Origin: Brachybacterium equifaecis
GTDB lineage: Bacteria > Actinomycetota > Actinomycetes > Actinomycetales > Dermabacteraceae
Reading direction: 5' to 3'
Assembly: GCF_023509525.1 (NCBI RefSeq)
Contig: NZ_JAKNCJ010000001.1
Location: 900,653-964,652, forward strand
DNA length: 64,000 nt
Position numbers and translations under genes: made by a program. Every line of letters begins with the position of its first letter. Positions within the stretch are counted from its first letter, which is position 1. Of the stretch, positions 4,873-33,165 are shown piece after piece. A model generated the notes under the pieces. The model saw only the letters and a program-made list of their open reading frames with translations. It searched no databases and was not told where the DNA came from.

Positions 4873-4874
4873 GC

Positions 4875-6101: not shown

Positions 6102-6245
6102 GTCGCTCTCCTTCTGGTCCGGGGACCGCGTGCCGTGCTCCCGGCACAGGAGGGCCGGCGCGCGTCGCGTGTGACGCGGCCCATGCTAGAGGGATCTGCC
6201 ATGGAGTGTCTGAGGATTCGATGGGCAGGACTGGCGCCCGGTTGC

Positions 6246-6812: not shown

Positions 6813-6879
6813 CTTCGTGTTCCTTCGCCTCGTTGGGGACAGAGGGGTGTTGCTGGAGAGCCGTGCGTCCGCTCCAAAC

Positions 6880-7638
6880 TTAGAGCCTCACTCCTCCGGT
6901 GGCGTCGAGCGACTGCCCTGTGATCCATCGACTGGACTCGCCCGCCAGGAAGGCGACGATATCCGCCACGTCGCGCGGCTGACCGACTCGTCCCAGTGCC
7001 GATTCGGCCGCAACCGCCTCACGGGCACCGGGCTCGTCAATCCACTCCGCATTGATGTCTGTGTCGATGACGCCGGGACGCACAGTGTTAACGGTGATGC
7101 TCCGCTTCCCCAGCTCGACCGCCACGGCCGTGAAGGCCGCCTCGAGCCCGGCCTTCGCGGCACTGTAGGCCACGTGCGTCGGGGCCGCGATCCGCGCGTA
7201 TCCGGACGACACACCGATCACCCGTGCACCTTCGCTGAGATGCGGGGACAGGTGATGCAGCAGCATCAGCGGGACCGCGAGATTCACAGTGAGAACCCGA
7301 CCCACAACGTCCCCCGTCAGCTCATCCAGAGCTTGCGCTCCGTTGATCCCCGCATTGCTCACCAGCACATCCGTACCGCCGAGTCCGTGGCGCTGCACCT
7401 CCTTGCGCCACGCATCCGCGAGGCTGGCAGCAGCCGCAGCGCCTTCGGAGAAATCAGCCTGGAGCACGACAGGTGCTGCACCGTGGCGCTCCACCTCTCG
7501 TGCCACCGCCTGGGCGGCAGCTGCGTCTGCGGCGTAGTGGATACCCACAACGCCGACGCCCTGTCGCGCCAGAGCAACAGCGATGGCGGCACCGATGCCC
7601 CGTGAAGCCCCGGTGACCAGGGCAGTCCGTCTCCGCAT
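6880..7638 (-). CDS. SDR-family NAD(P)-dependent oxidoreductase
   Basis: A 252-residue classical short-chain dehydrogenase. TGASRGIG (residues 9-16) binds the cofactor, NAG is at 95-97, and the catalytic Tyr158 and Lys162 lie in AYSAAKAG with the matching Ser144/145 (GVSSG). The C-terminus ITGQSLDATGG is typical of FabG-like members. The start chosen is the ATG at 7638; the same frame stays open further upstream but there it runs into the divergent tetR gene. The substrate is unknown. It is divergently paired with a TetR regulator, 54 bp apart, which suggests the regulator represses this gene. Confidence 0.8.
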   Translation of the reverse strand: MRRRTALVTGASRGIGAAIAVALARQGVGVVGIHYAADAAAAQAVAREVERHGAAPVVLQADFSEGAAAAASLADAWRKEVQRHGLGGTDVLVSNAGINGAQALDELTGDVVGRVLTVNLAVPLMLLHHLSPHLSEGARVIGVSSGYARIAAPTHVAYSAAKAGLEAAFTAVAVELGKRSITVNTVRPGVIDTDINAEWIDEPGAREAVAAESALGRVGQPRDVADIVAFLAGESSRWITGQSLDATGGVRL

Positions 7639-7657
7639 CTCAACTCCGTAGTGATCG

Positions 7658-7670
7658 TTACGTAATTGTA
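7658..7670 (-). promoter_or_regulatory. Predicted SDR promoter -10 box with adjoining palindrome (possible TetR operator)
   Basis: In the 54-bp divergent gap, the minus strand reads TACAAT at 7670-7665, five of six bases matching a sigma-70 type -10 box. It abuts the 8-bp palindrome TTACGTAA at 7658-7665, which would sit at the start site. No convincing -35 box is visible. TetR proteins commonly bind such sites between themselves and their target gene, but the palindrome is short, so the operator role is only a guess. Confidence 0.3.
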
Positions 7671-7692
7671 GAGAGGTACCGTAGCACGCACT

Positions 7693-8310
7693 ATGGAACA
7701 GATGACCCGCGCGCCAGGCAGGCCGCGTTCGTTCGACCTCGCCCAAGCACTCCATGACGCCTTGCTGACCTTCTGGAAGCACGGATACGAGGGCACGAGC
7801 GTGGCACGTCTGCAAGCGGCTACCGGCCTCACCGCCCCCGCTCTGTATCGGGCGTTCGGATCGAAGGAAGAGCTCTTCCGAAGTGCTGTCGACCGCTATC
7901 AGGAGCAGTATGGTTTCGGCCTCGCCGCCGGTGTCCCGTTCCGCAGCGCGGTCGCCGCCTATCTCCGGAGAGCCGCCCACGAGTTCACGACTGAACCCGG
8001 CCTCGGGTGCCTGATCTCCACGGGACTGCTCGCGAGCGGTCCCGATTCGCGCGTCTCGGCGGAGGTGGTGCGAGCCGAGCGGAAAAAGGCGCTTGCAGAC
8101 ATTCGCTCTCGCTGCCAGGCGGCCGTGGACAGCGGGGAGCTGCCGGAGTCGACCGATATCGCTGGACTCTCTCGAGCAATCGCGGCTGTCATTCAGGGCA
8201 TGTCGGTCCAAGCGCGCGACGGCGCTACTGAGATCGACCTTCTGGGGCTCGGGGAGTCCGCGATCCGTCTGATCCCAGACCACGCTTGTCCGGGTATTGA
8301 TCGCGAGTGA
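7693..8310 (+). CDS. TetR/AcrR-family transcriptional regulator
   Basis: A 205-residue protein with an N-terminal helix-turn-helix (GYEGTSVARLQAATGLTAPA, then a LYRAFGSKEELF segment) typical of TetR regulators. The C-terminal ligand-binding half resembles the TetR_C group found beside oxidoreductase genes (KKALADIRSRCQAAVDSGEL). An ATG at 7693 and another at 7702 are both possible starts; no strong ribosome-binding site separates them. It is transcribed away from the SDR gene, so it probably controls that gene and itself. Confidence 0.8.
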   Translation: MEQMTRAPGRPRSFDLAQALHDALLTFWKHGYEGTSVARLQAATGLTAPALYRAFGSKEELFRSAVDRYQEQYGFGLAAGVPFRSAVAAYLRRAAHEFTTEPGLGCLISTGLLASGPDSRVSAEVVRAERKKALADIRSRCQAAVDSGELPESTDIAGLSRAIAAVIQGMSVQARDGATEIDLLGLGESAIRLIPDHACPGIDRE

Positions 8311-8365
8311 ACAGGATGGGCGGCCGCCGCCGAGCGCGACGAGACGGAGCGAATCCAGCCAGAGC

Positions 8366-8373
8366 AGATTGAC
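8366..8373. repeat. Target-site duplication, left copy (AGATTGAC)
   Basis: The 8-bp sequence AGATTGAC directly precedes the left inverted repeat of the IS at 8374. An identical copy follows the right end at 9813-9820. Eight base pairs is the duplication length normal for ISL3-family elements. Confidence 0.9.
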
Positions 8374-9812
8374 GGCTCATCCCAATCGGGGGTGTAGGAG
8401 TTGGGGTCTGAAGCCGCCGGTCTCGAGCAGGCTTCGGGCGATGTAGTTGGTCAGGTTGCGGAACCCGAGTGCGGAGCCGCGCAGGTGTTCGAGCCGTCCG
8501 TTGAGCGCCTCGGTCGGCCCGTTGCTGGTGCCGGGTCGTTCGAAGTAGGCGAGCACGTCAGCGGCTCGCTTCTTCAGGGTCCGGCCCAGGGTGGTGAGCT
8601 CGGTGAGCACCTTGGGGACCCCGGCGCTGAGGTCGGTGATCAGCTTCTCCATGAGCTCGCGGCCACGTTGCCGGTCCTCGTGGCGATAGGCGGCGATCAT
8701 GCGCTGGTAGACACCCCAGGTCGCCTCGACCTCGACGTGAACGTCATCAACGAACAGCGCGCGCAGCCTGTCGCTCTGCTTGTCGGTGAGCAGGTCCGCG
8801 CCGGTGTGCAGCGTGCGCCGCGACTTGTAGAGCGGGTCGTCCCTGAACCCACGGTGCCCGTGGATCGCGAGTTGGACCCGGCGCCGGCACCTGTCGAGGG
8901 CGTCACCGGCCAGGCGCACGACGTGGAAGGGATCCATCACCGTGACCGCGTCCGGGATCTCCTCTGCAGCGGCGGTCTTGAACCCGGTGAAGCCGTCCAT
9001 CGCGACCACCTCGACCGCGTCACGGAAGGCGTCGTCGCGGTCGGCGAGCCAGGTCTTGAACGCCGCCTTCGACCGGCCCTCGACCATGTCCAGCAGCCTT
9101 GCTGGGCCAGCGCCATCGCGGACCGGGGTGAGGTCGATGATCACGGTGACGTACTTGTCGCCACGCCTGGTGTGGCGCCAGACGTGCTCATCGACGCCAA
9201 TGACCTTCACGCCCTCAAACCGCGTGGGGTCGTTGATCAGCAGCCGCTTGCCTTCAGCCAGGACCGCGTTGTTGGCGGTGTCCCACGCGACCCCGAGTCC
9301 CTCGGCGACACGGGCGACGGTGAGGTGTGCGACCACGATCCCTTCCAGCGCCCACCGCAACCCGGTGCGCGAGAGCTTCGCGCGTGGCTCCGCCGCGGCG
9401 CTGGTGTCTTGGCGCCACACGTATCCGCAGTCGGCACAGCGGTAGCGGCGCACTACAACTTCCAGCACGGTCGGTCGCCAGCCCAGGGGCTCGTGGGCCA
9501 ACCGCCGGATCGCGGTGTCACGAGCAGCGCCTTCGCTGCCGCACCGTCGGCACCACTGATCTGGTTCCACCACGCGGCACGCGAGGACCGCACGATCCGG
9601 TTCAAGTCGTTGTCCGGTCACGCTCAGACCGAGGCCGTCGAGTCGAGCGAAAGCGGTCAGGTCAGGGCGGCCGAAGCCGGCCGGCGGGGTAGCGTCGGTC
9701 ACGTCGAGGTCTTTCGGATGGATGGCGTAGGAACCTCCATCGTCGGGAGACCTCGACGTCTACCTGCGGACCGACGCGCCCGGCCGACCTACACCCTCAT
9801 CTGGGAAGAGCC
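8374..9812. mobile_element. Complete ISL3-family insertion sequence, 1,439 bp
   Basis: The ends form imperfect terminal inverted repeats of about 25 bp. The left end reads GGCTCATCCCA and the right end, read inward, GGCTCTTCCCA; both continue to a shared GGGTGTAGG. A single transposase gene fills the element and its stop codon lies inside the left repeat. Perfect 8-bp direct repeats AGATTGAC flank it at 8366-8373 and 9813-9820. Clean repeats and an intact transposase suggest a recent and potentially active insertion. It lies between the TetR gene and the SMI1-like gene and does not appear to interrupt either. Confidence 0.9.
8377..9702 (-). CDS. ISL3-family transposase
   Basis: A 441-residue transposase. 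A zinc-finger region comes first (CRRCG near the N-terminus and CADCG further on), then a helix-turn-helix, then the DDE catalytic core. GVDEHVWRHTRRGDKYVTVI holds the first Asp, VMDPFHVVRLAGDALD the second, and SNGPTEALNGRLEHLRG the Glu. These motifs are diagnostic for ISL3 (DDE_Tnp_ISL3). The ATG at 9702 lies about 110 bp inside the right end. The frame is intact. It belongs to the same family as the transposase at 27627-28997 but is clearly divergent from it. Confidence 0.95.
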   Translation of the reverse strand: MTDATPPAGFGRPDLTAFARLDGLGLSVTGQRLEPDRAVLACRVVEPDQWCRRCGSEGAARDTAIRRLAHEPLGWRPTVLEVVVRRYRCADCGYVWRQDTSAAAEPRAKLSRTGLRWALEGIVVAHLTVARVAEGLGVAWDTANNAVLAEGKRLLINDPTRFEGVKVIGVDEHVWRHTRRGDKYVTVIIDLTPVRDGAGPARLLDMVEGRSKAAFKTWLADRDDAFRDAVEVVAMDGFTGFKTAAAEEIPDAVTVMDPFHVVRLAGDALDRCRRRVQLAIHGHRGFRDDPLYKSRRTLHTGADLLTDKQSDRLRALFVDDVHVEVEATWGVYQRMIAAYRHEDRQRGRELMEKLITDLSAGVPKVLTELTTLGRTLKKRAADVLAYFERPGTSNGPTEALNGRLEHLRGSALGFRNLTNYIARSLLETGGFRPQLLHPRLG

Positions 9813-9820
9813 AGATTGAC
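9813..9820. repeat. Target-site duplication, right copy (AGATTGAC)
   Basis: Identical to 8366-8373, immediately after the right end of the IS at 9812. This fixes both element boundaries to the base. Confidence 0.9.
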
Positions 9821-9871
9821 GGATACCCAACCCATTCTTGCCCGGATGTCCATGGAACCGGACCGGAGGGG

Positions 9872-10428
9872 TCAGGCGAGGCCGTCCTCGATCGCGTAGC
9901 GGCGGGCGTCCTCGATGTTCTCGAGGTTGTCGGCGATCATCGCGGTGAAGAACTCCTCGAAGGTCGCGTACCGCTCGCCCACACCGTCGTAGAACCAGGC
10001 CACGTGGGGCTGCGCTGAGCCGTCGCGATGCTGCATGACGAACAGGCAGTCGATCTCCAGATCGGCGGCGATCGGGAACAGGGCGCCTCTGTGCAGCCCA
10101 GCCTCTTCGAGCATCTCGTCGGGCCACACGCTGACCATCAGCTCCAGCGCCGCCTGCGCAGCAGTGTCGCCGAGCTCGTCCGAGCTGAACAGGTCGGCAC
10201 CGGTGAGGAATCCTCGCCAGCCGTCGGCGTGCGCGAGGAACGCCCGGTGCGCGGGGTCGAGCGCGAAGCCCAGCCGCGCCTCGGTCGCCGCGAGCTTCTC
10301 CTCAGTCGCGGCCACCGCGGGAAGAAGCCCGAGGCATCCGCGGCGTGGAGCTCCTGCTTGGTCAGGACCATCAGGCCGATGTGCGCGGGCCAGTTGAAGG
10401 GACTGTCAGGGGCAGGCGACTCGCTCAT
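9872..10428 (-). pseudogene. SMI1/KNR4-like (immunity-type) protein, frameshifted
   Basis: The gene appears to start at ATG 10428 (MSESPAPDSPFNWPAHIGLM) and reads about 36 codons to GFFP. There the frame breaks at the GGG run 10319-10321. The continuation, ATEEKLAATEARLGFALDPA and onward to the TGA near 9872, lies in the next frame. It resembles SMI1/KNR4 proteins: hydrophobic HRAFLAHADGW, then LFSSDEL, then a DGSAQPHVAWFYDG strand. Adding one C on the minus strand restores a single frame of about 185 codons. An internal ATG at 10315 could still give a 147-residue protein. SMI1/KNR4 proteins often act as immunity proteins to polymorphic toxins, but no toxin gene is adjacent. A sequencing error cannot be excluded. 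Confidence 0.6.
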
Positions 10429-10442
10429 GGCTCGGTCCTCCT

Positions 10443-10883
10443 TCACGCCGATTCGACCATCGGCAGGATCGTGGTGACTGCACCATCGTCGTCGTAGTCG
10501 ACGGCGATGTCGTAGCCCGCATGGAAGTAGTCGAAGGCCGGCAGCTCTTCGATGGGAGGGCCGAAGAACGCGCGGACGGTCTCGCGGTTCGCCGCACCGA
10601 GATCGAGGCCGTTCACCAGCGCCTCGGGCCTCGCGTACGGCGTGAAGCCCTTCTGCGGCGTGAGGTAGATGAACGCGCGCAGCACGACGCCGTCGCGCAG
10701 CATGATCGACACGCCGCTCGGCAGCGAGCGCACCGCGCTGTAGAGCGCACCTGCGTTCCGCACCGGCGGGGTCTCCTCGACCTCGCCCAGCAGGGCGAGC
10801 GCCGGCTCGAGCCGCGGGTCGCCGATCCGGACGCCGAACGCATCCATGAACGTCCGCAGCTCTCCGGTGATCTCTGTGGGCAT
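10443..10883 (-). CDS. Hypothetical protein, acidic, possibly immunity-like
   Basis: A 146-residue acidic protein with no recognised domain. Visible features are a predicted helical N-terminus, a beta-rich middle (VSIMLRDGVVLRAFIYLTPQ) and an acidic C-terminus (YDIAVDYDDDGAVTTILPM). The start chosen is the ATG at 10883; an in-frame reading further upstream to 10925 lacks a better ribosome-binding site. It lies 14 bp upstream of the SMI1-like gene on the same strand, so the two form a likely operon. Size, charge and partner are compatible with an immunity protein, but this is a guess. Confidence 0.55.
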   Translation of the reverse strand: MPTEITGELRTFMDAFGVRIGDPRLEPALALLGEVEETPPVRNAGALYSAVRSLPSGVSIMLRDGVVLRAFIYLTPQKGFTPYARPEALVNGLDLGAANRETVRAFFGPPIEELPAFDYFHAGYDIAVDYDDDGAVTTILPMVESA

Positions 10884-11028
10884 CGCTTCTCTCCGCTCGA
10901 GGGTCCGGGTGCGCCGTGATGTCACCGGACAGGGTCGTCGCTGGACTCATCTCTCGGCACCATCGCCGCTCGAGGCTCGCTGGGGGCCGACGCTACCGGA
11001 CGCCGCGGCCCGGCGGAAGATGCGCTTT

Positions 11029-11205
11029 TCAGGCGGAATCGCTGCTCGGCACTACGAGCGCTGCGAGCATGGTCCGCCCGTCGGCGCGGGAGCGGAGCTC
11101 CTCGGTGGCCGGGCCCGCGAACCGCAGGGCCTCCTGCGACTCCTCGTCCTCGAGGCGGTGACCGAGGGCCAGGCGGAACGCCTCGAGCTCACCCAGCACC
11201 CGCAT
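11029..11205 (-). CDS. Small hypothetical protein (58 aa)
   Basis: A 58-residue frame whose ATG (11205-11203) overlaps the stop codon of the preceding gene by one base (TGATG), a common sign of translational coupling. The product is Glu/Arg/Leu-rich (EAFRLALGHRLEDEESQEAL) and probably helical. No family is recognised. Support rests only on the coupling and on codon use that matches its neighbours. Confidence 0.4.
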   Translation of the reverse strand: MRVLGELEAFRLALGHRLEDEESQEALRFAGPATEELRSRADGRTMLAALVVPSSDSA

Positions 11206-11642
11206 CACAGGCTCTGCGGATCGGTGATCGGCCGCAGGGAGGCGTTCTCGATCTGGAAGCTCTCCAGCAGACGCAGCGCCTGCTCGCTGAGCGCCAGGGT
11301 CGTACTCCGGCGCACGGCGGCGATGTCGTCGCCGGCGGTCAGCGATCCTGTCGGCACCAGCCGGCGCCACACGGGCAGAGGTGGGTAGTCGAACTCGTCC
11401 CACGTCGGCCCGGTCGTCACGACGACGTCCGCGAGCTCGAAGCCCGTCAGCGCGGAGGACTGCAGCGCTGCGGCGAGCGCTTCGGTGACGAGCCAGAACC
11501 CGGAGGTCTCGACGATGTCATCGCCGAGCCACCCCTCGAACTCGGCGTGGAGCGTGCCCACCAGGCGCGGCTCGCGGTCATGGCGAAAGTCGCTGCCGGC
11601 GCCGAGGGAGATCGTGACCTCGGCTTCGAAGAGGGTGTGCAT
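11205..11642 (-). CDS. Hypothetical protein
   Basis: A 145-residue protein of unknown family. It is acidic and has a mixed composition with several aromatic residues (WDEFDYPPLPVWRRL near the middle). The C-terminus (RLLESFQIENASLRPITDPQ) looks helical and then extended. No signal peptide or membrane segment is seen. It is coupled by a one-base stop/start overlap to a 58-residue frame downstream. It lies 29 bp upstream (by position) of the convergent-looking end of the ABC exporter region, but on the same strand as that gene. Confidence 0.55.
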   Translation of the reverse strand: MHTLFEAEVTISLGAGSDFRHDREPRLVGTLHAEFEGWLGDDIVETSGFWLVTEALAAALQSSALTGFELADVVVTTGPTWDEFDYPPLPVWRRLVPTGSLTAGDDIAAVRRSTTLALSEQALRLLESFQIENASLRPITDPQSL

Positions 11643-11671
11643 GCGGTCAGGCTAGCCCGCATCGCGATCCC

Positions 11672-13570
<1,899 letters not shown>

Positions 13571-23479: not shown

Positions 23480-24985
23480 TCAGGCCCGTGCGCCCGCCCT
23501 CCCGGCGAGCTTCGCGCGGATGGTGAGGCCGAGCACGAGCAGCAGCACCACGTACAGGCCGATCGCGATCGGGCTGGAGACGAGCACGCTCGCGTCGCCG
23601 TCGGCGCTCTGCATCGCGTCGCGCAGGCTGTACTCCGCGAGCGGGCCGAGCACCATGCCGATGATCAGCGGTGCCAGCGGGTAGTCGAAGGTGCGCATGA
23701 GGAAGGCGAGCACGCCGATCACGAGCAGCACGATCAGATCCGCGATCGAGGAGCTGGAGGCGTAGATGCCGAGCCCGCAGAACATCGTGATGCCCGCGTA
23801 CAGGTAGGGCTTCGGGATCAGCAGCAGCTTCGCCCAGAGCATCGCGAAGGGCAGGTTGATCGCCAGCAGCACGATCATCGCGACGAAGAAGCTCGCCATC
23901 AGCGCCCACACCAGATCGGGGCGGTTCACGAACAGCAGGGGCCCTGGCTGGAGACCGAACATGCGGAACGCCGCGAGGATCACCGCGGCCGTCGCGGAGA
24001 TCGGCAGGCCCAGCGCCAGCAGGGCGCCCATCGCCATGCCGGTGGTGGAGTTGCCGGCGGCCTCCGGCGCGGCGAGGCCGCGGATCGCGCCGGTGCCGAA
24101 CTGGGGGTCGGGGCGGCGGGAGTCCAGCTTCTTCTCCGCGCCGTAGGCGAGGAACGTCGGGATCTCGGAGCCGCCGGCGGGGATCACGCCGAACGGGAGG
24201 CCGATGGCGGTGCCGCGCAGCCACGCGGGCAGCGCCTCGCGGAACTCCTTCCCGGAGAGCCAGGGCCGGCCCTTCGGGCGCAGCATCTCGCCCTCGTCGG
24301 TCTTCCGGGCGATCACGCCCATGTAGATGACCTCGCCGAGGGCCAGCATGCCCACGGTCACGGTGACGATGGAGATGCCGTCGAACAGCAGCGGGCTGCC
24401 GAGAGTGAAGCGCGGTGCGCCCGAGACGCCGTCGATGCCGATCACCGCGATGGCGAGGCCGAGCACGAGGGCCAGCAGGCCCTTGATCGCGCTGTCGGTC
24501 ACCACCGAGCTGGTGGCGACGAAGGCGAACAGGGCGAGCGCGAAGAACTCCGCGGGGCCGAACTGCGAGGAGAACTCCGCGAGCCATGGGGCGAGGAAGG
24601 TGACGACCACCGAGGCGATCATGCCGCCGATGAACGCGCCGATCGCGGCGGTCGCGAGCGCCTGGGGCGCCCTGCCGTTCTGCGCCATCTTGTAGCCCTC
24701 GAAGGTCGAGGCGATGGAGGAGGCCTGCCCGGGGGTGTTCAGCAGGATCGCCATCGTGGAGTCGCCGAAGAGGCCTCCGAAGTAGATGCCGGAGAACATG
24801 ATGAGCGCGGCGGTCGGCTCGAGAGCGAAGGTGACGGGCAGCAGCAGGGCCACCGCCATCGAGGACCCGAGGCCCGGCATGACGCCGACGGCGGTGCCGA
24901 GGAAGCAGCCGATGACCACCCACAGCAGGTTCTGGATGCTGAGGACGTGCCCGAAGCCGTCGATCAGAGAGGCGAGCGAATCCAT
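23480..24985 (-). CDS. tctA: Tripartite tricarboxylate transporter, large membrane subunit TctA
   Basis: A 501-residue polytopic membrane protein with the TctA signature segments: GVMPGLGSSMAVALLLPVTF near residue 35, IYFGGLFGDSTMAILLNTPG, and GVIPAGGSEIPTFLAYGAEK. About eleven to twelve hydrophobic segments are present. TctA forms the main channel of TTT importers that take up citrate, tartrate or aromatic acids using a periplasmic-type binding protein. It follows tctB with a 1-bp gap. The substrate cannot be read from the sequence. Confidence 0.9.
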   Translation of the reverse strand: MDSLASLIDGFGHVLSIQNLLWVVIGCFLGTAVGVMPGLGSSMAVALLLPVTFALEPTAALIMFSGIYFGGLFGDSTMAILLNTPGQASSIASTFEGYKMAQNGRAPQALATAAIGAFIGGMIASVVVTFLAPWLAEFSSQFGPAEFFALALFAFVATSSVVTDSAIKGLLALVLGLAIAVIGIDGVSGAPRFTLGSPLLFDGISIVTVTVGMLALGEVIYMGVIARKTDEGEMLRPKGRPWLSGKEFREALPAWLRGTAIGLPFGVIPAGGSEIPTFLAYGAEKKLDSRRPDPQFGTGAIRGLAAPEAAGNSTTGMAMGALLALGLPISATAAVILAAFRMFGLQPGPLLFVNRPDLVWALMASFFVAMIVLLAINLPFAMLWAKLLLIPKPYLYAGITMFCGLGIYASSSSIADLIVLLVIGVLAFLMRTFDYPLAPLIIGMVLGPLAEYSLRDAMQSADGDASVLVSSPIAIGLYVVLLLVLGLTIRAKLAGRAGARA

Positions 24986-24986
24986 G

Positions 24987-25559
24987 TCAGAACCCCCATC
25001 CGAGAATGCCCGAGGGGAGGCTCAGGCCGAGCAGCATGTCGAAGCCGATGTAGGCGATCGAGGAGACCGTCAGCCCGATCACGAGGTCCTTCAGCGGGGT
25101 GCGCGAGCCGAATCCGCGGGCGACGCCCCAGAACAGGAGCGCTGCGGCGATGATCCAGCCGAGGATCTCGAGGGTGACCGCGAAGGCGAGGAAGGATCCG
25201 ATGATCCACAGAAGGGAGGGCACGTCCATCCGGCTGCTGGTCCCGGCCTCGACGACGAGTCCGGACTGACGGCGCTGGTCCTCGTCCTCCCCGAGCTCGA
25301 CGAGGTCCCCGCTGCGCCAGTCGCGCACTGCGGTGATGGTCTGCAGGATCACCAGGATCGTCATGGCGATGACGATGATCAGCGGGAAGAAGCGGGGACC
25401 GGGGAACGCGGCATTGCCGGGGACGGTCATCGTGACCAGCCCGTAGACCAGGTAGATGATGACGGCGACGAGCACGATCGGCATCGTCAGCTCGCGCAGG
25501 AGGTGGATCGGGGCCCGACGGTCCTCGACCTTCCCCAGAGGGGCGAAGCTGCTGCTCAT
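24987..25559 (-). CDS. tctB: Tripartite tricarboxylate transporter, small membrane subunit TctB
   Basis: A 190-residue protein with four hydrophobic segments. The pattern GNAAFPGPRFFPLIIVIAM is the conserved TctB motif, in which P-G-P-R-F-F-P follows the first helix. The cytoplasmic loop between helices 2 and 3 (residues about 70-105) is longer and more charged than usual. Its start overlaps the end of tctC by 4 bp, and tctA follows after 1 bp, so the three genes are translated together. Confidence 0.85.
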   Translation of the reverse strand: MSSSFAPLGKVEDRRAPIHLLRELTMPIVLVAVIIYLVYGLVTMTVPGNAAFPGPRFFPLIIVIAMTILVILQTITAVRDWRSGDLVELGEDEDQRRQSGLVVEAGTSSRMDVPSLLWIIGSFLAFAVTLEILGWIIAAALLFWGVARGFGSRTPLKDLVIGLTVSSIAYIGFDMLLGLSLPSGILGWGF

Positions 25560-26605
25560 GCGTTCATCTCCTCGTAGAGCGCGCGGATGCGGGTCTCCTG
25601 ATCGGCGAGGAACGCGGTGAGCTCATCGCCGGTGATGACGTTCTCGGTCCATGCGTACTTCTCCATCGCGTCGGCCCACTCGGGGGTCGCCACGGTCTCG
25701 AGCACGATCTCGACGAGCTCGTCGACGGTCTCGGGCTCGAGGCCCGCGGGGGCGGAGACCGAGCGCCAGTTCGAGAGGGTGACGTCGTAGCCCTGCTCGA
25801 TCGCGGTCGGCACGTCGAGGCCCTCGATCGGCTCCTTCGCGATCAGGGCGAGGGCGCGCAGGCGGCCCGCCTCGATCTGGTCGCGGGTGTCGGGCAGTCC
25901 GCTCGCGGCGGCCTTGGCGGTGCCGTTCAGCAGCGCGGCGAGCGCTTCGCCGCCGCCGTCGGAGGAGATGTAGTTGACGTCGGCGCCGGTGAGCCCCGCC
26001 TTCACGGCGAGATCGGTGACGACGAGCTGGTCGAAGGAGCCGCCGCCGGTCCACGGCACCGCCCCCGGGTTCGCGGTCCAGTCGGCCACCAGCGCGGCGA
26101 GGTCCTGGTACGGCGAGTTCGCCGGGACGACGATCGCGTCGTACTCCTCCACGAGCACCGCGAGCGGGGTGATGTCGGTGAACTTCGTCTTCGAGTCGAA
26201 CTGGATGGTGCCGGCCATCAGCCCGGTGCCGCCGATCAGCAGCATGTCGGACTGGCCGGAGAGGGTCGCGAAGTTGTTCAGGGCGATCGTGCCGCCGGCG
26301 CCGGGCATGTTCAGCACCTGCGTGTTGTTCACGATCGAGTTCTCGCGCTGCGCCTGCTGCATCTGCCGTGCGACGGCGTCCCATCCGCCGCCCGCGGCCG
26401 CCGGGGCGACGAGCGAAAGGGAGGAGCGCACATCGCTGCCGGAGGAGGCGGAGAGGATGGAGCCCGCGGTCGCAGTGCCGATGGCGCCTGCGGCGACGAG
26501 GGCGCCGAGGACGGTCATCGCCGTGCGGCGGGTGGGCGCGGCGGGCGGATTCGCCGGGGAATCCGGTGAGGGATCCGGCGGGACCGCGGAGGAGGCATGG
26601 GACAT
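25556..26605 (-). CDS. tctC: Tripartite tricarboxylate transporter substrate-binding protein TctC
   Basis: A 349-residue Bug/TctC-type binding protein. The N-terminus has a proline-rich head, then RRTAMTVLGALVAAGAIGTA (about residues 26-45), which is a signal or anchor sequence, possibly Tat-type because of the twin arginine. The mature part shows LVAPAAAGGGWDAVARQMQQ and LNMPGAGGTIALNNF, the conserved P-G-A-G-G-x-I-A ligand loop. There is no lipobox cysteine. First gene of the tctCBA operon. Confidence 0.85.
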   Translation of the reverse strand: MSHASSAVPPDPSPDSPANPPAAPTRRTAMTVLGALVAAGAIGTATAGSILSASSGSDVRSSLSLVAPAAAGGGWDAVARQMQQAQRENSIVNNTQVLNMPGAGGTIALNNFATLSGQSDMLLIGGTGLMAGTIQFDSKTKFTDITPLAVLVEEYDAIVVPANSPYQDLAALVADWTANPGAVPWTGGGSFDQLVVTDLAVKAGLTGADVNYISSDGGGEALAALLNGTAKAAASGLPDTRDQIEAGRLRALALIAKEPIEGLDVPTAIEQGYDVTLSNWRSVSAPAGLEPETVDELVEIVLETVATPEWADAMEKYAWTENVITGDELTAFLADQETRIRALYEEMNA

Positions 26606-27596: not shown

Positions 27597-27620
27597 TCAG
27601 ATCTCGACAAGGACTTTTCC
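27597..27620 (-). pseudogene. Severed last codons of the quinone-oxidoreductase gene
   Basis: Read on the minus strand, 27620-27597 gives codons for G-K-V-L-V-E-I and a TGA. This is the natural C-terminus of zinc-independent quinone oxidoreductases (SKGK-V-x-V-E/x). The body of the gene ends at the other side of the mobile element, where the same first codons (GGA AAA GT) recur as part of the 8-bp target duplication. Confidence 0.8.
27613..27620. repeat. Target-site duplication of the dld transposable unit, left copy (ACTTTTCC)
   Basis: ACTTTTCC directly precedes the left inverted repeat at 27621. The only matching copy is at 31341-31348, after the second right end. The sequence after the first right end (29067-29074, ATCTATGG) does not match. 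Confidence 0.9.
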
Positions 27621-27626
27621 GGCTCT

Positions 27627-28997
27627 TCAGAGTTGAGTGTGGGGTGAGGCGTCGAGACCGCCGGTGATGAGGAGCATGCGGAGTCGGTAGTGCTCGAAGT
27701 TGCGGAACCCTCTGGCGATGCGGCGGCCGAGTTCGATGATCCCGTTGACGGCCTCTGTCCCGCCGTTGCTCGCGCCGTCGGTGTCGAAGTAGGCCAGGAA
27801 CGCTGTCCGCCAGCGGCGCAGGGTCGTCCCGAGCCGCGCGATCTCGGGGATCGGGCACGATGGCAGCTTCTCGATCAGCTGCTCGGCCAGTCGACGACCC
27901 CGGGCGGGTGTGGGCTGGTGGAACACGTCTCGGAGGTCCTGGACGCAGTGGTAGGCGACCTCGACCTCGATGTGAGCGGGATGGGCGTCGAAAGCGCTGG
28001 CCAGACGCACCTGTTGCCTGCTCGTCAAGCGTTCTCGGCCGGCGCGAAGGACGTTGCGGATCCCGTAGAGAGGATCACCCTTGCGGCCGCGGTGGCCGAG
28101 GGTCTCCTGCTGGATCCGGCGGCGGACGTCGTCGATCGCAGCCCCGCCGAGCTTCACGATGTGGAACGCATCCAGTACGCAGGTGGCATCCTCGAGGCGG
28201 TCATCGATCGCGTTCTTGTATCCCTGGAACGGATCCAGCGTCGCGATGTCGATACTTTGCCGGAACTCCTCGCCCCGCTCGTCGAGCCAGTTGCGATAGA
28301 CCGTCCCGGATCGGCCCGGGACGAGATCGAGAAGCCTCGCGGTCGGGTGGGGGCCGCGCGTCAGATCGACCATCCCGGTGAGTTCCTTCGGACCACGCCG
28401 GCGAGGATCACGGTGATGCCAGACATGCTCGTCCACGCCCAGGACATGCACTCCTTCGAACCTGGACGGGTCCTCGGCGGCCAGGGTCAGGACGGGCTGA
28501 ACCTGGGACCAGAGCGTGTTCCAGGTGGTGCCGAGCTGCCGCGCCAGGCCCTGGATCGTCGCTCCTTCACGGCGGAGCTGGCTGATCGCCCACCGAACCG
28601 TACGGATGCTCAACAGTCCCCGCGGTGCGCAAACCTCGGGATCCTGTTCGAGGAACGTCGCCACGGGACAGATGTCCTCAAGGCAGATCCAGCGGCGCTT
28701 CCGCCACCGGATCCGCACCGGCCTGCCGGCCCAGGGCGCATCGATCATCTCGACCATCACACGGCCGTGACCAGTCGCGATGACTCCACAGCCAGGGCAG
28801 CCCGTGACCGGATCGCAGGACTCCACCTCGAGCATCAGGCCTGATGGAGCCTGCGAGACCGCGATCAGGTGAAGGCCGGGGAAGTCCAGGAGAAGATCGC
28901 ATCTCCCATAGCGATCGAGCGCGTCAGGGCATACGCAACTATGGTTGTGTATCGTCGAGGTCCTTGGTGCGAGCAGAGGTAGAAGTCCGCTCATCAT
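27627..28997 (-). CDS. ISL3-family transposase
   Basis: A 456-residue transposase with an intact frame. A zinc finger (GCPGCGVIA and later CLEDICPV) is followed by a helix-turn-helix. The DDE core has GVDEHVWHHRDPRRRGPKEL (first Asp), CVLDAFHIVKLGGAAIDD (second Asp) and SNGGTEAVNGIIELGRRIAR (Glu). The stop codon lies inside the left inverted repeat, as in the other ISL3 element of the window. The start at 28997 is the first ATG; a later start near residue 30 is possible. Confidence 0.95.
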   Translation of the reverse strand: MMSGLLPLLAPRTSTIHNHSCVCPDALDRYGRCDLLLDFPGLHLIAVSQAPSGLMLEVESCDPVTGCPGCGVIATGHGRVMVEMIDAPWAGRPVRIRWRKRRWICLEDICPVATFLEQDPEVCAPRGLLSIRTVRWAISQLRREGATIQGLARQLGTTWNTLWSQVQPVLTLAAEDPSRFEGVHVLGVDEHVWHHRDPRRRGPKELTGMVDLTRGPHPTARLLDLVPGRSGTVYRNWLDERGEEFRQSIDIATLDPFQGYKNAIDDRLEDATCVLDAFHIVKLGGAAIDDVRRRIQQETLGHRGRKGDPLYGIRNVLRAGRERLTSRQQVRLASAFDAHPAHIEVEVAYHCVQDLRDVFHQPTPARGRRLAEQLIEKLPSCPIPEIARLGTTLRRWRTAFLAYFDTDGASNGGTEAVNGIIELGRRIARGFRNFEHYRLRMLLITGGLDASPHTQL

Positions 28998-29019
28998 CCG
29001 GGACCTCGACGCTTACCAC

Positions 29020-29066
29020 CAGCTACCCCGCACCACCAGCGCACCCACACTCAACTCTGAAGAGCC
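29020..29066. repeat. Inner copy of the IS right end (47 bp)
   Basis: Identical base for base to 31294-31340. It contains the right inverted repeat, whose outer 23 bp are the reverse complement of 27621-27643. Beyond the left edge of the 47 bp the two copies diverge at once. Confidence 0.9.
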
Positions 29067-29386
29067 ATCTATGGGGTGAGGGCAGTGGCCGACATCGTGG
29101 TCCGAACTATCGCGGTCCGAACCTACCGGAGTCCGAAAGTACCGCGGTCCGAAACTATCTGATGCGCATCTTCTACAATGAGGATGTGCGTATGCACATG
29201 CATACGCACACGCACACTCCTTGGACGCCGTAGCGAGCTTCCGGGCAGACGGTCGCAGACGTCGTCCCCCTGGCTCGTTTCCCCGCCCATCAAAAAATGA
29301 ACGACCGCGGACTAGCTCGGATCAAGGCGACATCCCCTCAGCATCATGACGCGCTTGTGATGCAACTGAATATAGGAAGCTTAGAG
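29067..29386. promoter_or_regulatory. dld: dld leader: iterons, -10 box, 24-bp near-palindrome
   Basis: This 320-bp stretch has no gene and is less GC-rich than its surroundings. The core TCCGAA recurs at 29101, 29116, 29132 and 29148, within four GGTCCGAA(A/C)CTA-like units about 16 bp apart. A -10-like TACAAT follows at 29174-29179. A near-palindrome at 29186-29209 (GTGCGTATGCA, then its mirror image; 22 of 24 bases symmetric) would sit at the start of transcription. A CACA-rich run follows it. AGGAAG at 29374-29379 is the ribosome-binding site for the ATG at 29387. Confidence 0.55.
29186..29209. promoter_or_regulatory. dld: Candidate operator of dld (24-bp near-palindrome)
   Basis: The left arm GTGCGTATGCA and right arm TGCATACGCAC are mirror images except for the central bases. 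It lies 7 bp after the TACAAT hexamer, so a bound repressor would block initiation. GntR-family lactate regulators (LldR type) bind near-palindromes, but the sequence here is not one I can assign. Confidence 0.45.
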
Positions 29387-31102
29387 ATGACGCAACCAGG
29401 ACAGACCACCACGACTTCGCACGAAGCGATCGATGCGTTCAAGAGAATCGTCGGCGACGAACATGTACTGACCTCTGAGCGTGCCACGATGCCATTCAGC
29501 AAAGGCTATCGATTCGGCGGAGGACCAGTCTTCGCCGTGGTGCGCCCCGGCACGCTGGTCGAGATGTGGCGGGCGCTGCAGGTATCCGTCGACAACAACC
29601 TCATCGTCATCCCGCAGGCATCGAACACGGGCCTGACTGGTGGATCCGGCCCCGGCTTCCAAGACTACGATCGCCCCATTGTGATCATCTCGACTCACCG
29701 CATCGATGAGGTGCACCTCATCAACGACGCGCGCGAGGCGATCTCGCTCGCGGGCACCCCGCTGACACACCTGACCGACGCGCTCGCCAAGCACCAGCGC
29801 GAGCCGCACTCGGTGATCGGGTCGACATCAATCGGCGCCTCGGTCATCGGCGGCATCGCGAACAACTCGGGCGGCAGCCAGATTCGCAAGGGTCCGGCAT
29901 TCACGCGCGAAGCGATCTTCGCCCGCGTCAACGACCACGGCAAGGTCGAGCTGGTCAATCACCTGGGCATCTCGCTCGGAGACGACCCTGAGGTCGCACT
30001 CGACCGTCTACAGTGCGGCGAGTGGTCTCCCGAGGATGTCACCCCAGCTCCCGAAGACTCGAACGAGACCGAGTACGCCGAGCACTTGCGCAAGATCGTG
30101 CCTTCGCCTGCTCGCTACAATGCGAACCCCGAGTACCTGTTCGAGGCTTCCGGCTCGGCCGGCAAGCTGATGGTGTTCGCGGTGCGCACCCGCACCTTCC
30201 CTCGCGAAGTGCACCCGACCGTGTTTTACATCGGCACGAACAACACGCACGAGCTCGAAGAGATCCGTCGGTTGTTCCTCGAAGCCGACATGCCGCTGCC
30301 TATCTCTGGTGAGTACATGGGCCGCAGTGCCTTCGACTTGGCCGAGAAGTACGGCAAAGACACCTTCGTCTTCCTGAAGTTCATGAGTCCAGCGCTGCAG
30401 ACGCGCATGTTCTCGTTCAAGACGTGGGCCAACGGCTTGTTCTCGAAGATTCCCGGCATTGGTCCGACCTTCGCCGACACGGTATCGCAAGCCATGTTCA
30501 GCGTGCTGCCCAACCAGCTGCCCAAGCGCATGATGGAGTACCGCAACCGTTTCGAGCATCACCTGCTGCTCACCGTCAGCGAGTCGCAGAAGGCCGCGAG
30601 CGAGAAGATGCTCAAGGAGTTCTTCGCAGAGCCCGAGCACACTGGTGAGTTCTTCATCTGCACGTCTGATGAAGAAAAGAGCGCGTCGCTCAACCGGTTC
30701 GGCGCGGCCAGTGCCGCCACTCGCTACGCCGCGTTGAAGCGCCGGCACATCGCAGGGCTCATCCCCATCGATGTGGCCCTGCGTCGCGACGATTGGAACT
30801 GGCTCGAGGTGCTGCCGGAGGAGATCGACGACCAGCTTGAGGTCAAGGCGTATTACGGGCACTTCTTCTGCCATGTGATGCACCAGGACTATGTCGCCAA
30901 GCAGGGCGTGGATCCCGAGGCGCTGCACGACCGCATCCAGCACCTGCTGGAGGAGCGCGGCGCGAAGCTGCCCGCCGAGCACAACTACGGTCGCATCTAC
31001 AAGCTGCCGGAGTCCATGGAAGAGCACTTCAAGGAGCTCGATCCGACGAATACGTTCAACGCCGGTATCGGCGGCACGTCGCCGCACAAGGACTGGGCCT
31101 AA
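29387..31102 (+). CDS. dld: Quinone-dependent D-lactate dehydrogenase
   Basis: A 571-residue membrane-associated flavoprotein that oxidises D-lactate to pyruvate and passes electrons to quinones. This is the same length as E. coli Dld. The FAD domain (about residues 20-260) contains VVRPGTLVEMWRALQ, IPQASNTGLTGGSGP and GASVIGGIANNSGGSQIRKG, the FAD_binding_4 pattern. The C-terminal half is the Dld-specific membrane-binding domain (NRFEHHLLLTVSES, YYGHFFCHVMHQDYVAK, AEHNYGRIYKLPESM, DPTNTFNAGIGGTSP). The in-frame region before 29387 is not part of the usual protein, and AGGAAG precedes this ATG. Codon use is less GC-biased than in the neighbours, consistent with transfer. It is the passenger gene of the ISL3 unit. 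Confidence 0.95.
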   Translation: MTQPGQTTTTSHEAIDAFKRIVGDEHVLTSERATMPFSKGYRFGGGPVFAVVRPGTLVEMWRALQVSVDNNLIVIPQASNTGLTGGSGPGFQDYDRPIVIISTHRIDEVHLINDAREAISLAGTPLTHLTDALAKHQREPHSVIGSTSIGASVIGGIANNSGGSQIRKGPAFTREAIFARVNDHGKVELVNHLGISLGDDPEVALDRLQCGEWSPEDVTPAPEDSNETEYAEHLRKIVPSPARYNANPEYLFEASGSAGKLMVFAVRTRTFPREVHPTVFYIGTNNTHELEEIRRLFLEADMPLPISGEYMGRSAFDLAEKYGKDTFVFLKFMSPALQTRMFSFKTWANGLFSKIPGIGPTFADTVSQAMFSVLPNQLPKRMMEYRNRFEHHLLLTVSESQKAASEKMLKEFFAEPEHTGEFFICTSDEEKSASLNRFGAASAATRYAALKRRHIAGLIPIDVALRRDDWNWLEVLPEEIDDQLEVKAYYGHFFCHVMHQDYVAKQGVDPEALHDRIQHLLEERGAKLPAEHNYGRIYKLPESMEEHFKELDPTNTFNAGIGGTSPHKDWA

Positions 31103-31138
31103 GTCCCCAAGGTAGCGCGACGCTGTGAGAGCCTGAGC

Positions 31139-31210
31139 GATGTCTTATCCATCTCGGGTGGACCTAGGGCTCGACTCCCTAGGTCCACCGGGACGGATGA
31201 GTCGAGACAT
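31139..31210 (+). terminator. Large hairpin after dld (probable terminator)
   Basis: A perfect 13-bp stem GGTGGACCTAGGG (31157-31169) / CCCTAGGTCCACC (31177-31189) with a 7-base loop stands 54 bp after the dld stop. The pairing continues imperfectly outward to GATGTC (31139) and GACATC (about 31205-31210). There is no T-run. Position and strength suggest transcription termination, although the long imperfect stem also resembles a palindromic repeat element. The rest of 31103-31293 holds nothing recognisable. Confidence 0.55.
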
Positions 31211-31293
31211 CGGTCAGAGGCTGGGCAGGCCATAGAATCGCGTGGCGGCGAGGGCCGCGCCCGGTCCGAGAACGGGTCATCGCCTCACGCCGT

Positions 31294-31340
31294 CAGCTAC
31301 CCCGCACCACCAGCGCACCCACACTCAACTCTGAAGAGCC
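31294..31340. repeat. Outer copy of the IS right end (47 bp)
   Basis: An exact duplicate of 29020-29066. It provides the functional right boundary of the dld unit and supplies the new 3' end and stop codon (TGA at 31325-31327) to the interrupted oxidoreductase gene. Confidence 0.9.
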
Positions 31341-32335
31341 ACTTTTCCCTTGGAGCGGCGGGACTCGAGGCGCTCGAACGCGGCCCGGTACTCCTCGAGC
31401 GGGAAACGGCTGTCGATCGGGACGCTCAAACGGCCCGCATCGACTTCGCGCACGAGCGCGGCGAGGCCGGCGCCGTCGGGGTGCATGAGGAAGAACTCGT
31501 AGGAGACGCCGAGGGCGCGCGCGGTCCGACGGATGCGCCGGCTCGCGGCGCGCTCGACGATCGCGGCGACCCAGCGGCGCGAGGGCGCGGCGATCACGGT
31601 GAGGCTGCCCGGGGAGGGAGGGCCGGAGATCGTCACGAGGGCCCCGCCGGGCTCGAGCGCGTGGAGAGCGTCGGAGACCGTGTCGCCGCCGACGAGGTCC
31701 AGCACCTTGTCGAAGCGCTCGGGGCCCTCGGAGACGGTGCGCTCGCGGTAGTCGATGACGTGCGCGGCGCCGAGGCCGCGAAGGATCTCGGCGCCCTCCG
31801 GAGACGCGGTGACGGTGACCTCGGCCCCGAGAGCCACGGCGAGCTGCACGGCGATCTGGCCAACGCCGCCTGCGGCGCCCGTGATCAGCAGCCGCTCGCC
31901 CGCGCGCACGTCGAGATGGTCGGGGCCGAGGGCCTGCTGGGCGGTGAGACCGGCGAGGGGGAGCCCTGCGGCGTCGGCCAGCGGGATCGAGGTGGGCGCT
32001 GCGGCGACGTGCGCGGCGCTCGTGGTCGCGAGCTGCGCGATGGCGCCGAGCTCGGACTTCCCGACGCGCGCGATGACGCTCTGCCCGACCTCGAAGCCGG
32101 TGACGCCCGCGCCGAGGGCCTCGATGACGCCGCTGAGCTCGTTGCCGGCGACCTTCGGGAAGCGGTAGGGGTCGATGGCCTTGAAGGTGCCCTCGCGCTG
32201 CAGGGCGTCGACGGGGTTCAGCCCGGCCGCGGTGACGCGGATCAGCACCTCTCCCGGAGCGGGCACGGGAGCAGGGACCTCGGTGAGGGACATGACGGAG
32301 GGGTCGCCGTAGGCGGTGAAGACGAGAGCACGCAT
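31325..32335 (-). CDS. NADP-dependent quinone oxidoreductase (MDR family), C-terminus altered by insertion
   Basis: A 336-residue zinc-independent medium-chain reductase. The N-terminus MRALVFTAYGDPSVMSLTEV and the catalytic-domain GLNPVDALQREG fit the quinone oxidoreductase group. The nucleotide-binding loop is LLITGAAGGVGQIAVQLAVALG (residues about 150-171), and the HVIDYRE motif follows. The ISL3 unit inserted at codon 333. The natural end GKV-LVEI became GKV-ALQS, then a stop from the inverted repeat. Only four residues differ, so activity may be retained. The ATG at 32335 is the best start; longer frames lack a ribosome-binding site. Confidence 0.85.
   Translation of the reverse strand: MRALVFTAYGDPSVMSLTEVPAPVPAPGEVLIRVTAAGLNPVDALQREGTFKAIDPYRFPKVAGNELSGVIEALGAGVTGFEVGQSVIARVGKSELGAIAQLATTSAAHVAAAPTSIPLADAAGLPLAGLTAQQALGPDHLDVRAGERLLITGAAGGVGQIAVQLAVALGAEVTVTASPEGAEILRGLGAAHVIDYRERTVSEGPERFDKVLDLVGGDTVSDALHALEPGGALVTISGPPSPGSLTVIAAPSRRWVAAIVERAASRRIRRTARALGVSYEFFLMHPDGAGLAALVREVDAGRLSVPIDSRFPLEEYRAAFERLESRRSKGKVALQS
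31341..31348. repeat. Target-site duplication of the dld unit, right copy (ACTTTTCC)
   Basis: Identical to 27613-27620 and directly adjacent to the outer right end at 31340. It codes for part of the GKV codons of the interrupted gene. Confidence 0.9.
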
Positions 32336-32406
32336 GGCGCCGATAGTAGGCGCGCGGGGCGCGGACTCCGGCCCCGGCTGGCCCTCTTCGCGGGCATACT
32401 CACCTG

Positions 32407-33165
32407 ATGCCCGATTCCCCCTCGCCCCTGACCGCCCTGCCGGCTGCGCCGCGCGCCGCCATCGCACGCGCCGCGACCCATCCCCTCGCACCGGCGGGGC
32501 TGCTGCTCCTGGCTCTGGGCCTCGTCGGCGCCCTCACGGTGGCGACCCACGAGGTCTACGAGGGGGTGACGGACGGCGACGGCATCGCGGTGCTCGACCA
32601 TCCCGTCCTGCAGTTCATGATCGACCACCGCACGCACTCCCTCACGCTGCTCGCCCAGGCGCTCGCGCACGCCGGCGATGTGATGGGCGCTGCGATCGTG
32701 ACGCTCCTGCTCATGGCAGGGCTTTGCGCGCTGCGCCGGGATCCGGCGCCGGCGCTGGTGATCGCGCCGGCGATGACGGGCGCGCTCGCGATCACCGCGC
32801 TCGGCAAGGCGATCGTCGGCCGGGTGCGCCCGCCGCACACGCTGGCTCTGCCGCCCCACGAGACCTCCCCGTCCTTCCCGAGCGGGCACACGCTGAACGC
32901 GACGGTGCTGATGGCGATCGTCGCCTACCTCGCCTGGATCTCGCTGCGCAGGGCCTGGCTGCGCTGGAGCGTGGTCGCAACGTGCGCCGGGTACGCGCTC
33001 GCGATGGGCATGAGCCGCGTCTACCTCGGCGCCCACTGGCTGACGGACGTGATCGCCGGGTGGCTGATCGGACTGGCGTGGTCGCTCGCGGTGATCACCG
33101 CGCACCAGCTGTGGCTGCGGCGCCGACGGGCCGAGCGCAGCGCAGAGCCCTCCCGCTCATGCTGA
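32407..33165 (+). CDS. PAP2-superfamily membrane phosphatase
   Basis: A 252-residue protein with about six membrane helices. All three motifs of the PAP2 active site are present: KAIVGRVRPPH (K-x6-RP), SFPSGHTLN (PSGH) and SRVYLGAHWLTD (SR-x5-H-x3-D). Such enzymes dephosphorylate undecaprenyl pyrophosphate or phosphatidic/phosphatidylglycerol phosphates at the outer membrane face. It diverges from the quinone-oxidoreductase gene; the 71-bp gap has no clear promoter. Confidence 0.85.
   Translation: MPDSPSPLTALPAAPRAAIARAATHPLAPAGLLLLALGLVGALTVATHEVYEGVTDGDGIAVLDHPVLQFMIDHRTHSLTLLAQALAHAGDVMGAAIVTLLLMAGLCALRRDPAPALVIAPAMTGALAITALGKAIVGRVRPPHTLALPPHETSPSFPSGHTLNATVLMAIVAYLAWISLRRAWLRWSVVATCAGYALAMGMSRVYLGAHWLTDVIAGWLIGLAWSLAVITAHQLWLRRRRAERSAEPSRSC

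What the first reader, a model, noticed from the sequence alone, without database searches (positions are those of the whole stretch)
27613..31348. D-lactate dehydrogenase gene carried as passenger by an ISL3-family transporter IS
The IS right end exists twice, as a 47-bp exact copy at 29020-29066 and 31294-31340. The 8-bp target duplication ACTTTTCC flanks the outer unit, at 27613-27620 and 31341-31348; nothing matches after the inner end. So the IS and dld moved together in one event. A catabolic gene as IS passenger is rare, and dld could spread by this route among actinobacteria. From memory and unchecked, the dld of Corynebacterium glutamicum ATCC 13032 has been described as horizontally acquired and flanked by 23-bp repeats. 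The terminal repeat here is also 23 bp, so this element may explain that observation.
Basis: partly seen in the sequence, partly recalled or inferred. Interest (0 to 1): 0.85.

Follow-up and report, generated by a model that had tools for sequence, protein, structure and literature searches.

The report
Jumping D-lactate gene carried by transposon
In this actinobacterial genome a predicted gene for using D-lactate lies between two matching ends of a jumping DNA element, flanked by the 8-base footprint such an element leaves, and nearly identical copies of the gene sit beside related elements in other actinobacteria, so this food-related trait is likely spread with the help of such elements.

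Summary
An ISL3-family IS (27621-29066) is followed by a dld module and a second exact 47-bp copy of the IS right end (31294-31340); the 3,720-bp unit is flanked by ACTTTTCC. Joining the flanks restores the end of the interrupted dehydrogenase gene (KGKVLVEI*; an uninterrupted homologue ends KGKVLVEF*). Simple copies of this IS in relatives make 8-bp duplications.

Near-identical modules were found in 11 loci of at least seven actinobacterial genera, two of them inferred (CDSs differ by 1-7 of 1,716 nt); ISL3 sequence abuts 10 of 11. Micrococcus lylae has the same architecture (IS, dld, orphan right end of 44-47 bp, perfect 8-bp duplication) with a transposase only 38% identical. A third unit with mixed ISL3 ends also has a perfect duplication; two others do not.

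So IS and dld moved together. Whether the second end was already an orphan at insertion, or a full second IS copy was deleted afterwards, is open. Transfer of this dld was proposed in 2010 and linked to IS3 elements; the recalled 23-bp repeats are not in that text. ISL3 passengers and composites have precedents. New here: the ISL3 route, its repetition with an unrelated IS, and the two-tier architecture.

The parts
27613..27620 (.). left copy of the 8-bp target duplication ACTTTTCC
27621..27643 (+). left terminal inverted repeat (23 bp) of the IS and of the whole unit
   Evidence: perfect complement of both right ends
27621..29066 (.). complete ISL3-family IS, 1,446 bp, the length of most simple copies checked in related genomes
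27627..28997 (-). ISL3 transposase, 456 aa, open; DDE_Tnp_ISL3 and Zn-ribbon domains
29020..29066 (+). inner right end of the IS (23-bp inverted repeat 29044-29066); no duplication next to it
29067..31298 (.). dld module (upstream region, dld, hairpin), near-identical in 10 other loci though cut at different points in some; the last 5 bp CAGCT are shared with the IS right end
29387..31102 (+). dld, predicted quinone-dependent D-lactate dehydrogenase, 571 aa; an in-frame upstream ATG at 29297 would give 601 aa
31157..31189 (+). strong hairpin behind dld (predicted terminator); the module is interrupted or ends at its CCTAGG in three other copies
   Evidence: fold; other copies
31294..31340 (+). 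second copy of the IS right end (47 bp, of which 42-47 IS-derived); 23-bp inverted repeat 31318-31340
31341..31348 (.). right copy of the 8-bp target duplication ACTTTTCC
31325..32491 (-). zinc-type alcohol dehydrogenase gene whose last codons were replaced by the insertion (...KGKVALQS*; joined flanks give ...KGKVLVEI*); ORF as listed, its true start not determined

Best explanation
The 3,720-bp stretch 27621-31340 is a transposition unit made of an ISL3-family IS plus dld: it runs from the IS left end to a second copy of the IS right end beyond dld and is flanked by an 8-bp target duplication, so the IS and dld likely inserted together in one event, driven by the IS's own predicted transposase. 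Shown: ends, duplication, restored target gene, open transposase and dld frames, near-identical dld modules beside ISL3 sequence in other genera. Inferred: the IS first inserted upstream of dld (at ATCTATGG), a second same-orientation copy lay downstream, and a short-homology deletion (5 bp, CAGCT) removed that copy except for 42-47 bp. Inferred: the transposase can pair the left end with either right end, moving the IS alone (1,446 bp) or with dld (3,720 bp). Inferred: transfer between cells rides on other vehicles such as plasmids, and the carried gene lets the host oxidise D-lactate. The confidence below is for the first sentence.
For: Anatomy. Joined flanks give ...SRRSKGKVLVEI*, and an uninterrupted homologue in same-genus genome G013 ends ...SRRAKGKVLVEF*. 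Simple copies of this IS: perfect 8-bp duplication in 6 of 13 copies checked (5 of 12, plus the G165 copy near dld), among them 3 of 3 of the ~98.8%-identical copies in G165. Mobile cargo: 11 distinct loci whose dld CDSs differ pairwise by 1-7 of 1,716 nt. Same architecture in M. lylae L009 5279-10135 (GTGTATCC both sides), with a transposase 38% identical to this one; its inner and outer right ends agree in 46 of 47 bp. Third duplication-flanked unit, G1229 (L156) 4013-12220 (GGATTCGG). One inner junction (IRR|TCCGAACC) behind unrelated left flanks in L009 and L011 (only 120 bp are held left of it in L008). Two-copy arrangements: L011, and G165, where the second copy is itself interrupted by another ISL3 IS. 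A simple copy of the window's IS lies downstream of dld in G165 in the same orientation, the arrangement a deletion would need. dld-bearing plasmid: L005. dld is the only PF09330 match in the host genome.
Against: No second copy of this exact unit at another site was found: of the 37 other same-genus genomes only G165 has the module at the strict cut-off, in a different arrangement. So use of the second end as an outer end rests on this insertion plus L009, and the same picture would result if a full IS-dld-IS element inserted and its second IS was deleted afterwards. A third short right-end remnant (67 bp, L006/L007/G574) faces the dld module the wrong way to serve as its outer end, so short remnants need not mean function. 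Two of five units with both outer ends assignable lack a matching duplication (L011, G165). GGATTCGG occurs a third time in the 16 kb of G1229. 7 of 13 simple IS copies lack a duplication, including one at 98.5% identity in G404. G528 carries the module with no ISL3 sequence found in the 15 kb fetched.
Confidence: 0.82

Rival explanations
1. Variant that shares the core (IS and dld inserted together) but disputes the order: a full direct-repeat element IS-dld-IS inserted at this site, and most of the second IS was later deleted in place, leaving 42-47 bp; the present unit never moved in its present form. Its confidence is conditional on the core.
For: Two-copy arrangements around the same module exist in L011 and G165; 5-bp microhomology at the breakpoint. 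It gives the same outer duplication.
Against: M. lylae has the same arrangement with an unrelated IS and nearly the same retained length (44-47 bp), which chance in-place deletions would not favour; but n is two, and a 67-bp remnant elsewhere is not an outer end.
Confidence: 0.4
2. ISL3 elements merely accumulate around a dld region that is moved by other vehicles (plasmids, conjugative islands, other ISs); the IS did not carry dld.
For: A plasmid copy, P. freudenreichii dld on genomic islands (PMC5644110, passages), and module copy G528 without ISL3 sequence found nearby.
Against: Outer 8-bp duplications around IS plus dld in three loci and the restored target gene when the window's flanks are joined are not expected from accumulation. 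It may still be right for transfer between cells.
Confidence: 0.1
3. Assembly error created the second right end or the outer duplication.
For: Draft genome in 23 contigs.
Against: This IS is single-copy in the genome, the repeat is only 47 bp, the joined flanks give an intact gene end, and an independent locus shows the same layout.
Confidence: 0.03
4. The second right end was copied in by template switching or aberrant one-ended transposition, without a former second IS copy.
For: Breakpoints show only 3-5 bp of shared sequence; retained ends are short in both cases.
Against: Two-copy arrangements exist and make simple deletion sufficient.
Confidence: 0.15

Closest known systems
dld of Corynebacterium glutamicum ATCC 13032 / Propionibacterium freudenreichii (2010, PMC3022706, passages seen)
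   Same: D-lactate dehydrogenase gene shared almost identically between distant actinobacteria (2367 of 2372 bp, as the paper states) beside insertion sequences; function shown there by disruption, complementation and expression in C. efficiens.
   Different: The paper attributes it to flanking IS3-family ISCg6a/b and the passages seen give no transposition unit. Here the carrier is an ISL3 unit with defined ends and duplication. That DNA could not be read, so identity of the module is inferred.
ISL3 ISs with passenger genes: ISPst2 (PMC6305408, passages), ISPpu12 (PMC12060670, passages)
   Same: ISL3 transposase plus non-transposition genes on one mobile element.
   Different: Those carry regulator, permease, signal-peptidase or metal genes within the IS. 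Here a catabolic gene lies outside a complete IS whose own right end is intact, with a second right end beyond it.
DEH of Pseudomonas sp. PP3 (PMC12060670, passages)
   Same: Catabolic gene (dehI) on a mobile element bounded by ISL3-family ISs.
   Different: Two almost identical full ISPpu12 copies flank the gene; here one full IS and one 47-bp end.
Iron-uptake composite transposon with ISL3 elements ISAar39/ISAar42 in Brevibacterium aurantiacum (PMC6579920, passages)
   Same: ISL3 elements bounding a niche gene cluster shared by cheese actinobacteria at 99% identity.
   Different: Different cargo, 11,797 bp; the passages seen describe no single-IS unit with a second right end.
ISEcp1-type units (recalled; only a search listing seen)
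   Same: One IS moves a neighbouring gene by using an alternative right end.
   Different: There the alternative end is a poor match (recalled); here it is an exact copy of the true end.

Membership tests
ISL3 insertion sequence family | ISL3 transposase with DDE_Tnp_ISL3 domain | tested here: met
   NF033550 271 bits (cut-off 180); PF01610 full length. PF13542 (ISL3 helix-turn-helix) at 23.4 bits is below its cut-off of 27.4
ISL3 insertion sequence family | terminal inverted repeats beginning GG and 8-bp target duplication (recalled as typical) | tested here: met
   23-bp perfect repeats starting GGCTCTTC; 8-bp duplications in 6 of 13 simple copies
Transporter IS (passenger gene between IS ends; definition recalled) | transposase and non-transposition gene together between one pair of ends with one outer duplication | tested here: met
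   27621-31340 with ACTTTTCC
Transporter IS (passenger gene between IS ends; definition recalled) | shown to transpose as a unit, or present at more than one site | tested here: inconclusive
   this unit found once; same architecture with another IS in L009
Composite / pseudo-compound transposon | two full IS copies flanking the cargo | tested here: not met
   second copy reduced to 42-47 bp
[quoted passage not shown]
   NF008387 799 bits (cut-off 391), PF09330 full length, PF01565 31.5 bits (cut-off 26.4)
[quoted passage not shown]
   no assay; D184H and R210C are the only differences from the L006 protein

The most novel reading that the evidence does not exclude
Orphan right ends of about 45 bp are working parts: unrelated ISL3 transposases have each captured the same dld gene by gaining a minimal second right end, giving two-size elements (IS alone, or IS plus dld). 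This would be a general ISL3 gene-capture route that is currently spreading D-lactate use through actinobacteria of cheese and animals.
Probability: 0.35. Interest if true: 0.65.

Novelty: new variant of a known kind. Interest (0 to 1): 0.5.

Why it matters
The 2010 report of dld transfer between C. glutamicum and P. freudenreichii left the conditions of transfer unclear (PMC3022706). Here are transposition units with exact ends and footprints for what appears to be the same gene, in several genera including cheese bacteria, so the route becomes testable. It also gives two natural examples, built on unrelated ISL3 transposases, of how a single IS plus a second end can pick up a metabolic gene, and an estimate (42-47 bp) of a right end that may suffice for ISL3 transposition.

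Tried and rejected
Tried without result: C. glutamicum ATCC 13032 and P. freudenreichii DNA. The one genome-contig scan showed neither among the 80 loci kept of 149; C. glutamicum appears only as one of 14 named control genomes, ringing for PF09330 without sequence. The recalled 23-bp repeats were therefore not tested in DNA. A search of 394 class-level genomes showed only the window's own genome, and 47 genomes of the family of G032 showed none, with the tool's warning that an empty answer shows nothing.

Rejected: simple IS insertion beside a resident dld (outer duplication and restored gene end); composite transposon in the strict sense (only 47 bp of the second copy); the idea that short retained right ends prove selection for function (the 67-bp remnant in L006/L007/G574 faces the wrong way). 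Dropped before counts: G694, G485 and G1187, which match L008, L009 and L011 by coordinates; dld genes of 86% protein identity or less (for example Pseudoclavibacter, Rothia, native Brachybacterium); the IS copy in L088, cut by a contig end.

Full report
Observation. All coordinates of the finding hold. The left end 27621-27643 is a perfect inverted repeat of right ends at 29044-29066 and 31318-31340; the right-end copies are identical over 47 bp, and ACTTTTCC flanks the outer unit only. Two random window positions share an 8-mer with probability 9.5e-5; at the duplication's own spacing, 13 of 60,264 positions do. The transposase (456 aa) and dld (571 aa) frames are open and score above their curated cut-offs.

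Empty site. The right flank is a zinc-type alcohol dehydrogenase gene read on the minus strand. With the element present its frame ends ...KGKVALQS* inside the terminal repeat. Joining the two flanks with one ACTTTTCC gives ...KGKVLVEI*, and the uninterrupted homologue in same-genus genome G013 ends ...KGKVLVEF*. This supports the outer boundaries and the duplication as insertion marks.

The IS itself. 15 of 38 genus genomes, the window's own included, hold this terminal sequence with at most one mismatch. Of 13 full-length copies checked in relatives, 6 have perfect 8-bp duplications (5 of 12, one), including all three ~98.8%-identical copies in G165; a 98.5% copy in G404 does not. These are simple ISs of about 1.45 kb, so the inner type of right end works alone.

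The cargo. The module 29067-31298 is near-identical in ten further loci: Microbacterium plasmid L005; Agrococcus casei L006, Ca. Agrococcus pullicola L007, Ca. Nesterenkonia stercoripullorum L008, Micrococcus lylae L009 and Mycetocola reblochoni L011; and unnamed G165, G574 and G528 and G1229. Per search, near-identical copies were 2 of 396 order-level genomes, 2 of 38 genus genomes, 4 of 395 in the family of G213 (13 of 395 pass the cut-off, nine of them lower-identity homologues), 2 of 398 in the family of G223 (5 of 398 pass), 1 of 394 class-level and 0 of 47; draws overlap. The 11 dld CDSs differ pairwise by 1-7 of 1,716 nt, with L006 near the centre of a star-like pattern. The next protein clusters are at 86% identity. 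G574 is probably Glutamicibacter arilaitensis Re117: its contig length of 3,859,257 equals the published chromosome (abstract), whose D-lactate dehydrogenase gene has no orthologue in three environmental Arthrobacter strains (PMC2991359, passages). L007 and L008 are 4-kb contigs of metagenome-assembled genomes, so their species assignment is weaker.

Carriers. ISL3 sequence abuts the module in 10 of 11 loci, in L005 as a transposase remnant reaching the module's first base; G528 shows none in the 15 kb fetched, by DNA search with four ISL3 elements and translated search with three transposases. The module's left junction falls at three IS boundaries: IRR|ATCTATGG (window), IRR|TCCGAACC (L008, L009, L011) and IRR|ACCAAACC (L006, L007, G574), and at a fourth in G165 (IRR|GGACTAGC). 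The TCCGAACC junction is inherited in L008, L009 and L011, while the 1.5-kb left flanks of L009 and L011 share no similarity; only 120 bp are held for L008. Of five loci where both outer ISL3 ends could be assigned, three have a perfect 8-bp duplication (window, L009 GTGTATCC, G1229 GGATTCGG) and two do not (L011, G165). L011 is a draft with two identical IS copies, so its flanks may be mis-joined. In L006 and G574 no partner for the right-hand duplication was found in the stretch held; L007 and L008 end inside an IS.

The second right end. L009 repeats the window's layout with a transposase 38% identical to the window's: complete IS, dld module (interrupted by an IS481-family IS), then an orphan right end and the duplication. 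Its two right ends agree in 46 of 47 bp; the outer one matches the related element in L011 fully. In the window the junction lies in CAGCT, present in both the intact module of relatives and the IS end; in L009 it lies in GCC. Retained lengths are 42-47 and 44-47 bp. A short-homology deletion inside a former two-copy element explains both. Two-copy arrangements exist in L011 and, with the second copy interrupted, in G165; in G165 a simple copy of the window's own IS lies downstream of dld in the same orientation. Whether deletion preceded or followed the insertion seen here cannot be read from one site. A 67-bp right-end remnant on the other side of dld in L006, L007 and G574 warns against reading function into every short remnant.

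Function. dld is the only Lact-deh-memb match in the host genome, whereas 14 of the 26 other same-genus genomes listed have a long match of 70-74% DNA identity, taken as native dld. The window copy has two amino-acid differences from L006 (D184H, R210C), at positions that also vary in a Bifidobacterium homologue. Use of D-lactate is predicted, not shown here; the C. glutamicum gene was shown by others to be needed for growth on D-lactate (PMC3022706, passages).

Literature. Passages or sections of 11 papers were seen. Horizontal transfer of dld was proposed in 2010 with IS3-family ISCg6. P. freudenreichii dld lies on genomic islands in eight strains, with that of a ninth just downstream of one (PMC5644110). 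Lactate genes are prominent among transferred genes in cheese bacteria (PMC5526665; the KEGG number named there for lactate dehydrogenase is, from recall, the L-type). ISL3 elements with passengers or as composites are known (PMC6305408, PMC12060670, PMC6579920). In the listings and passages seen from nine searches of an open-licence library no paper links dld to ISL3 elements; listings were capped (one search showed 20 of 9,467) and most subscription journals are not held.

Noticed in passing
window 31157-31189; L005 8530, L009 8782-9898, G528 (L149) 8661: At the CCTAGG of the hairpin behind dld (fold z-score -4.0) the module is interrupted once (L009, by an IS481-family IS) and ends twice (L005, G528); a possible insertion hot spot.
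   Followed up: partly
window 29094-29160 and the upstream region of ten other copies: GTCCGAA-containing 15/16-bp repeats upstream of dld vary in number between copies (0 to 6 GTCCGAA, partly because the region held is of different length); G165 keeps only 78 bp upstream of the start codon.
   Followed up: partly
L005 6001-6375: The plasmid copy joins an ISL3 fragment (left end plus about 113 codons of transposase) exactly at CACCAAACC, where other copies have an intact IS right end; it looks like an excision or adjacent-deletion scar.
   Followed up: partly
L156 4013-12220 (G1229): An 8.2-kb unit with dld has ends from two different ISL3 elements in inverted orientation, yet a perfect 8-bp duplication (GGATTCGG), suggesting that ends of related ISL3 elements can be paired.
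   Followed up: partly
L006 5331-6665, identical in G574, partial in L007 and L008: The 1,335-bp ISL3 element beside dld has a split transposase missing a central part (profile 136-183), so it is probably non-autonomous.
   Followed up: partly
window 23480-26605: A tripartite tricarboxylate transporter set (TctA, TctB, TctC) lies about 1 kb to the left of the element.
   Followed up: no
L149 (G528) 6585-8661: A single-contig genome of the same genus handle as M. lylae carries the dld module with no ISL3 sequence found in the 15 kb fetched, so other routes must also move or retain it.
   Followed up: partly
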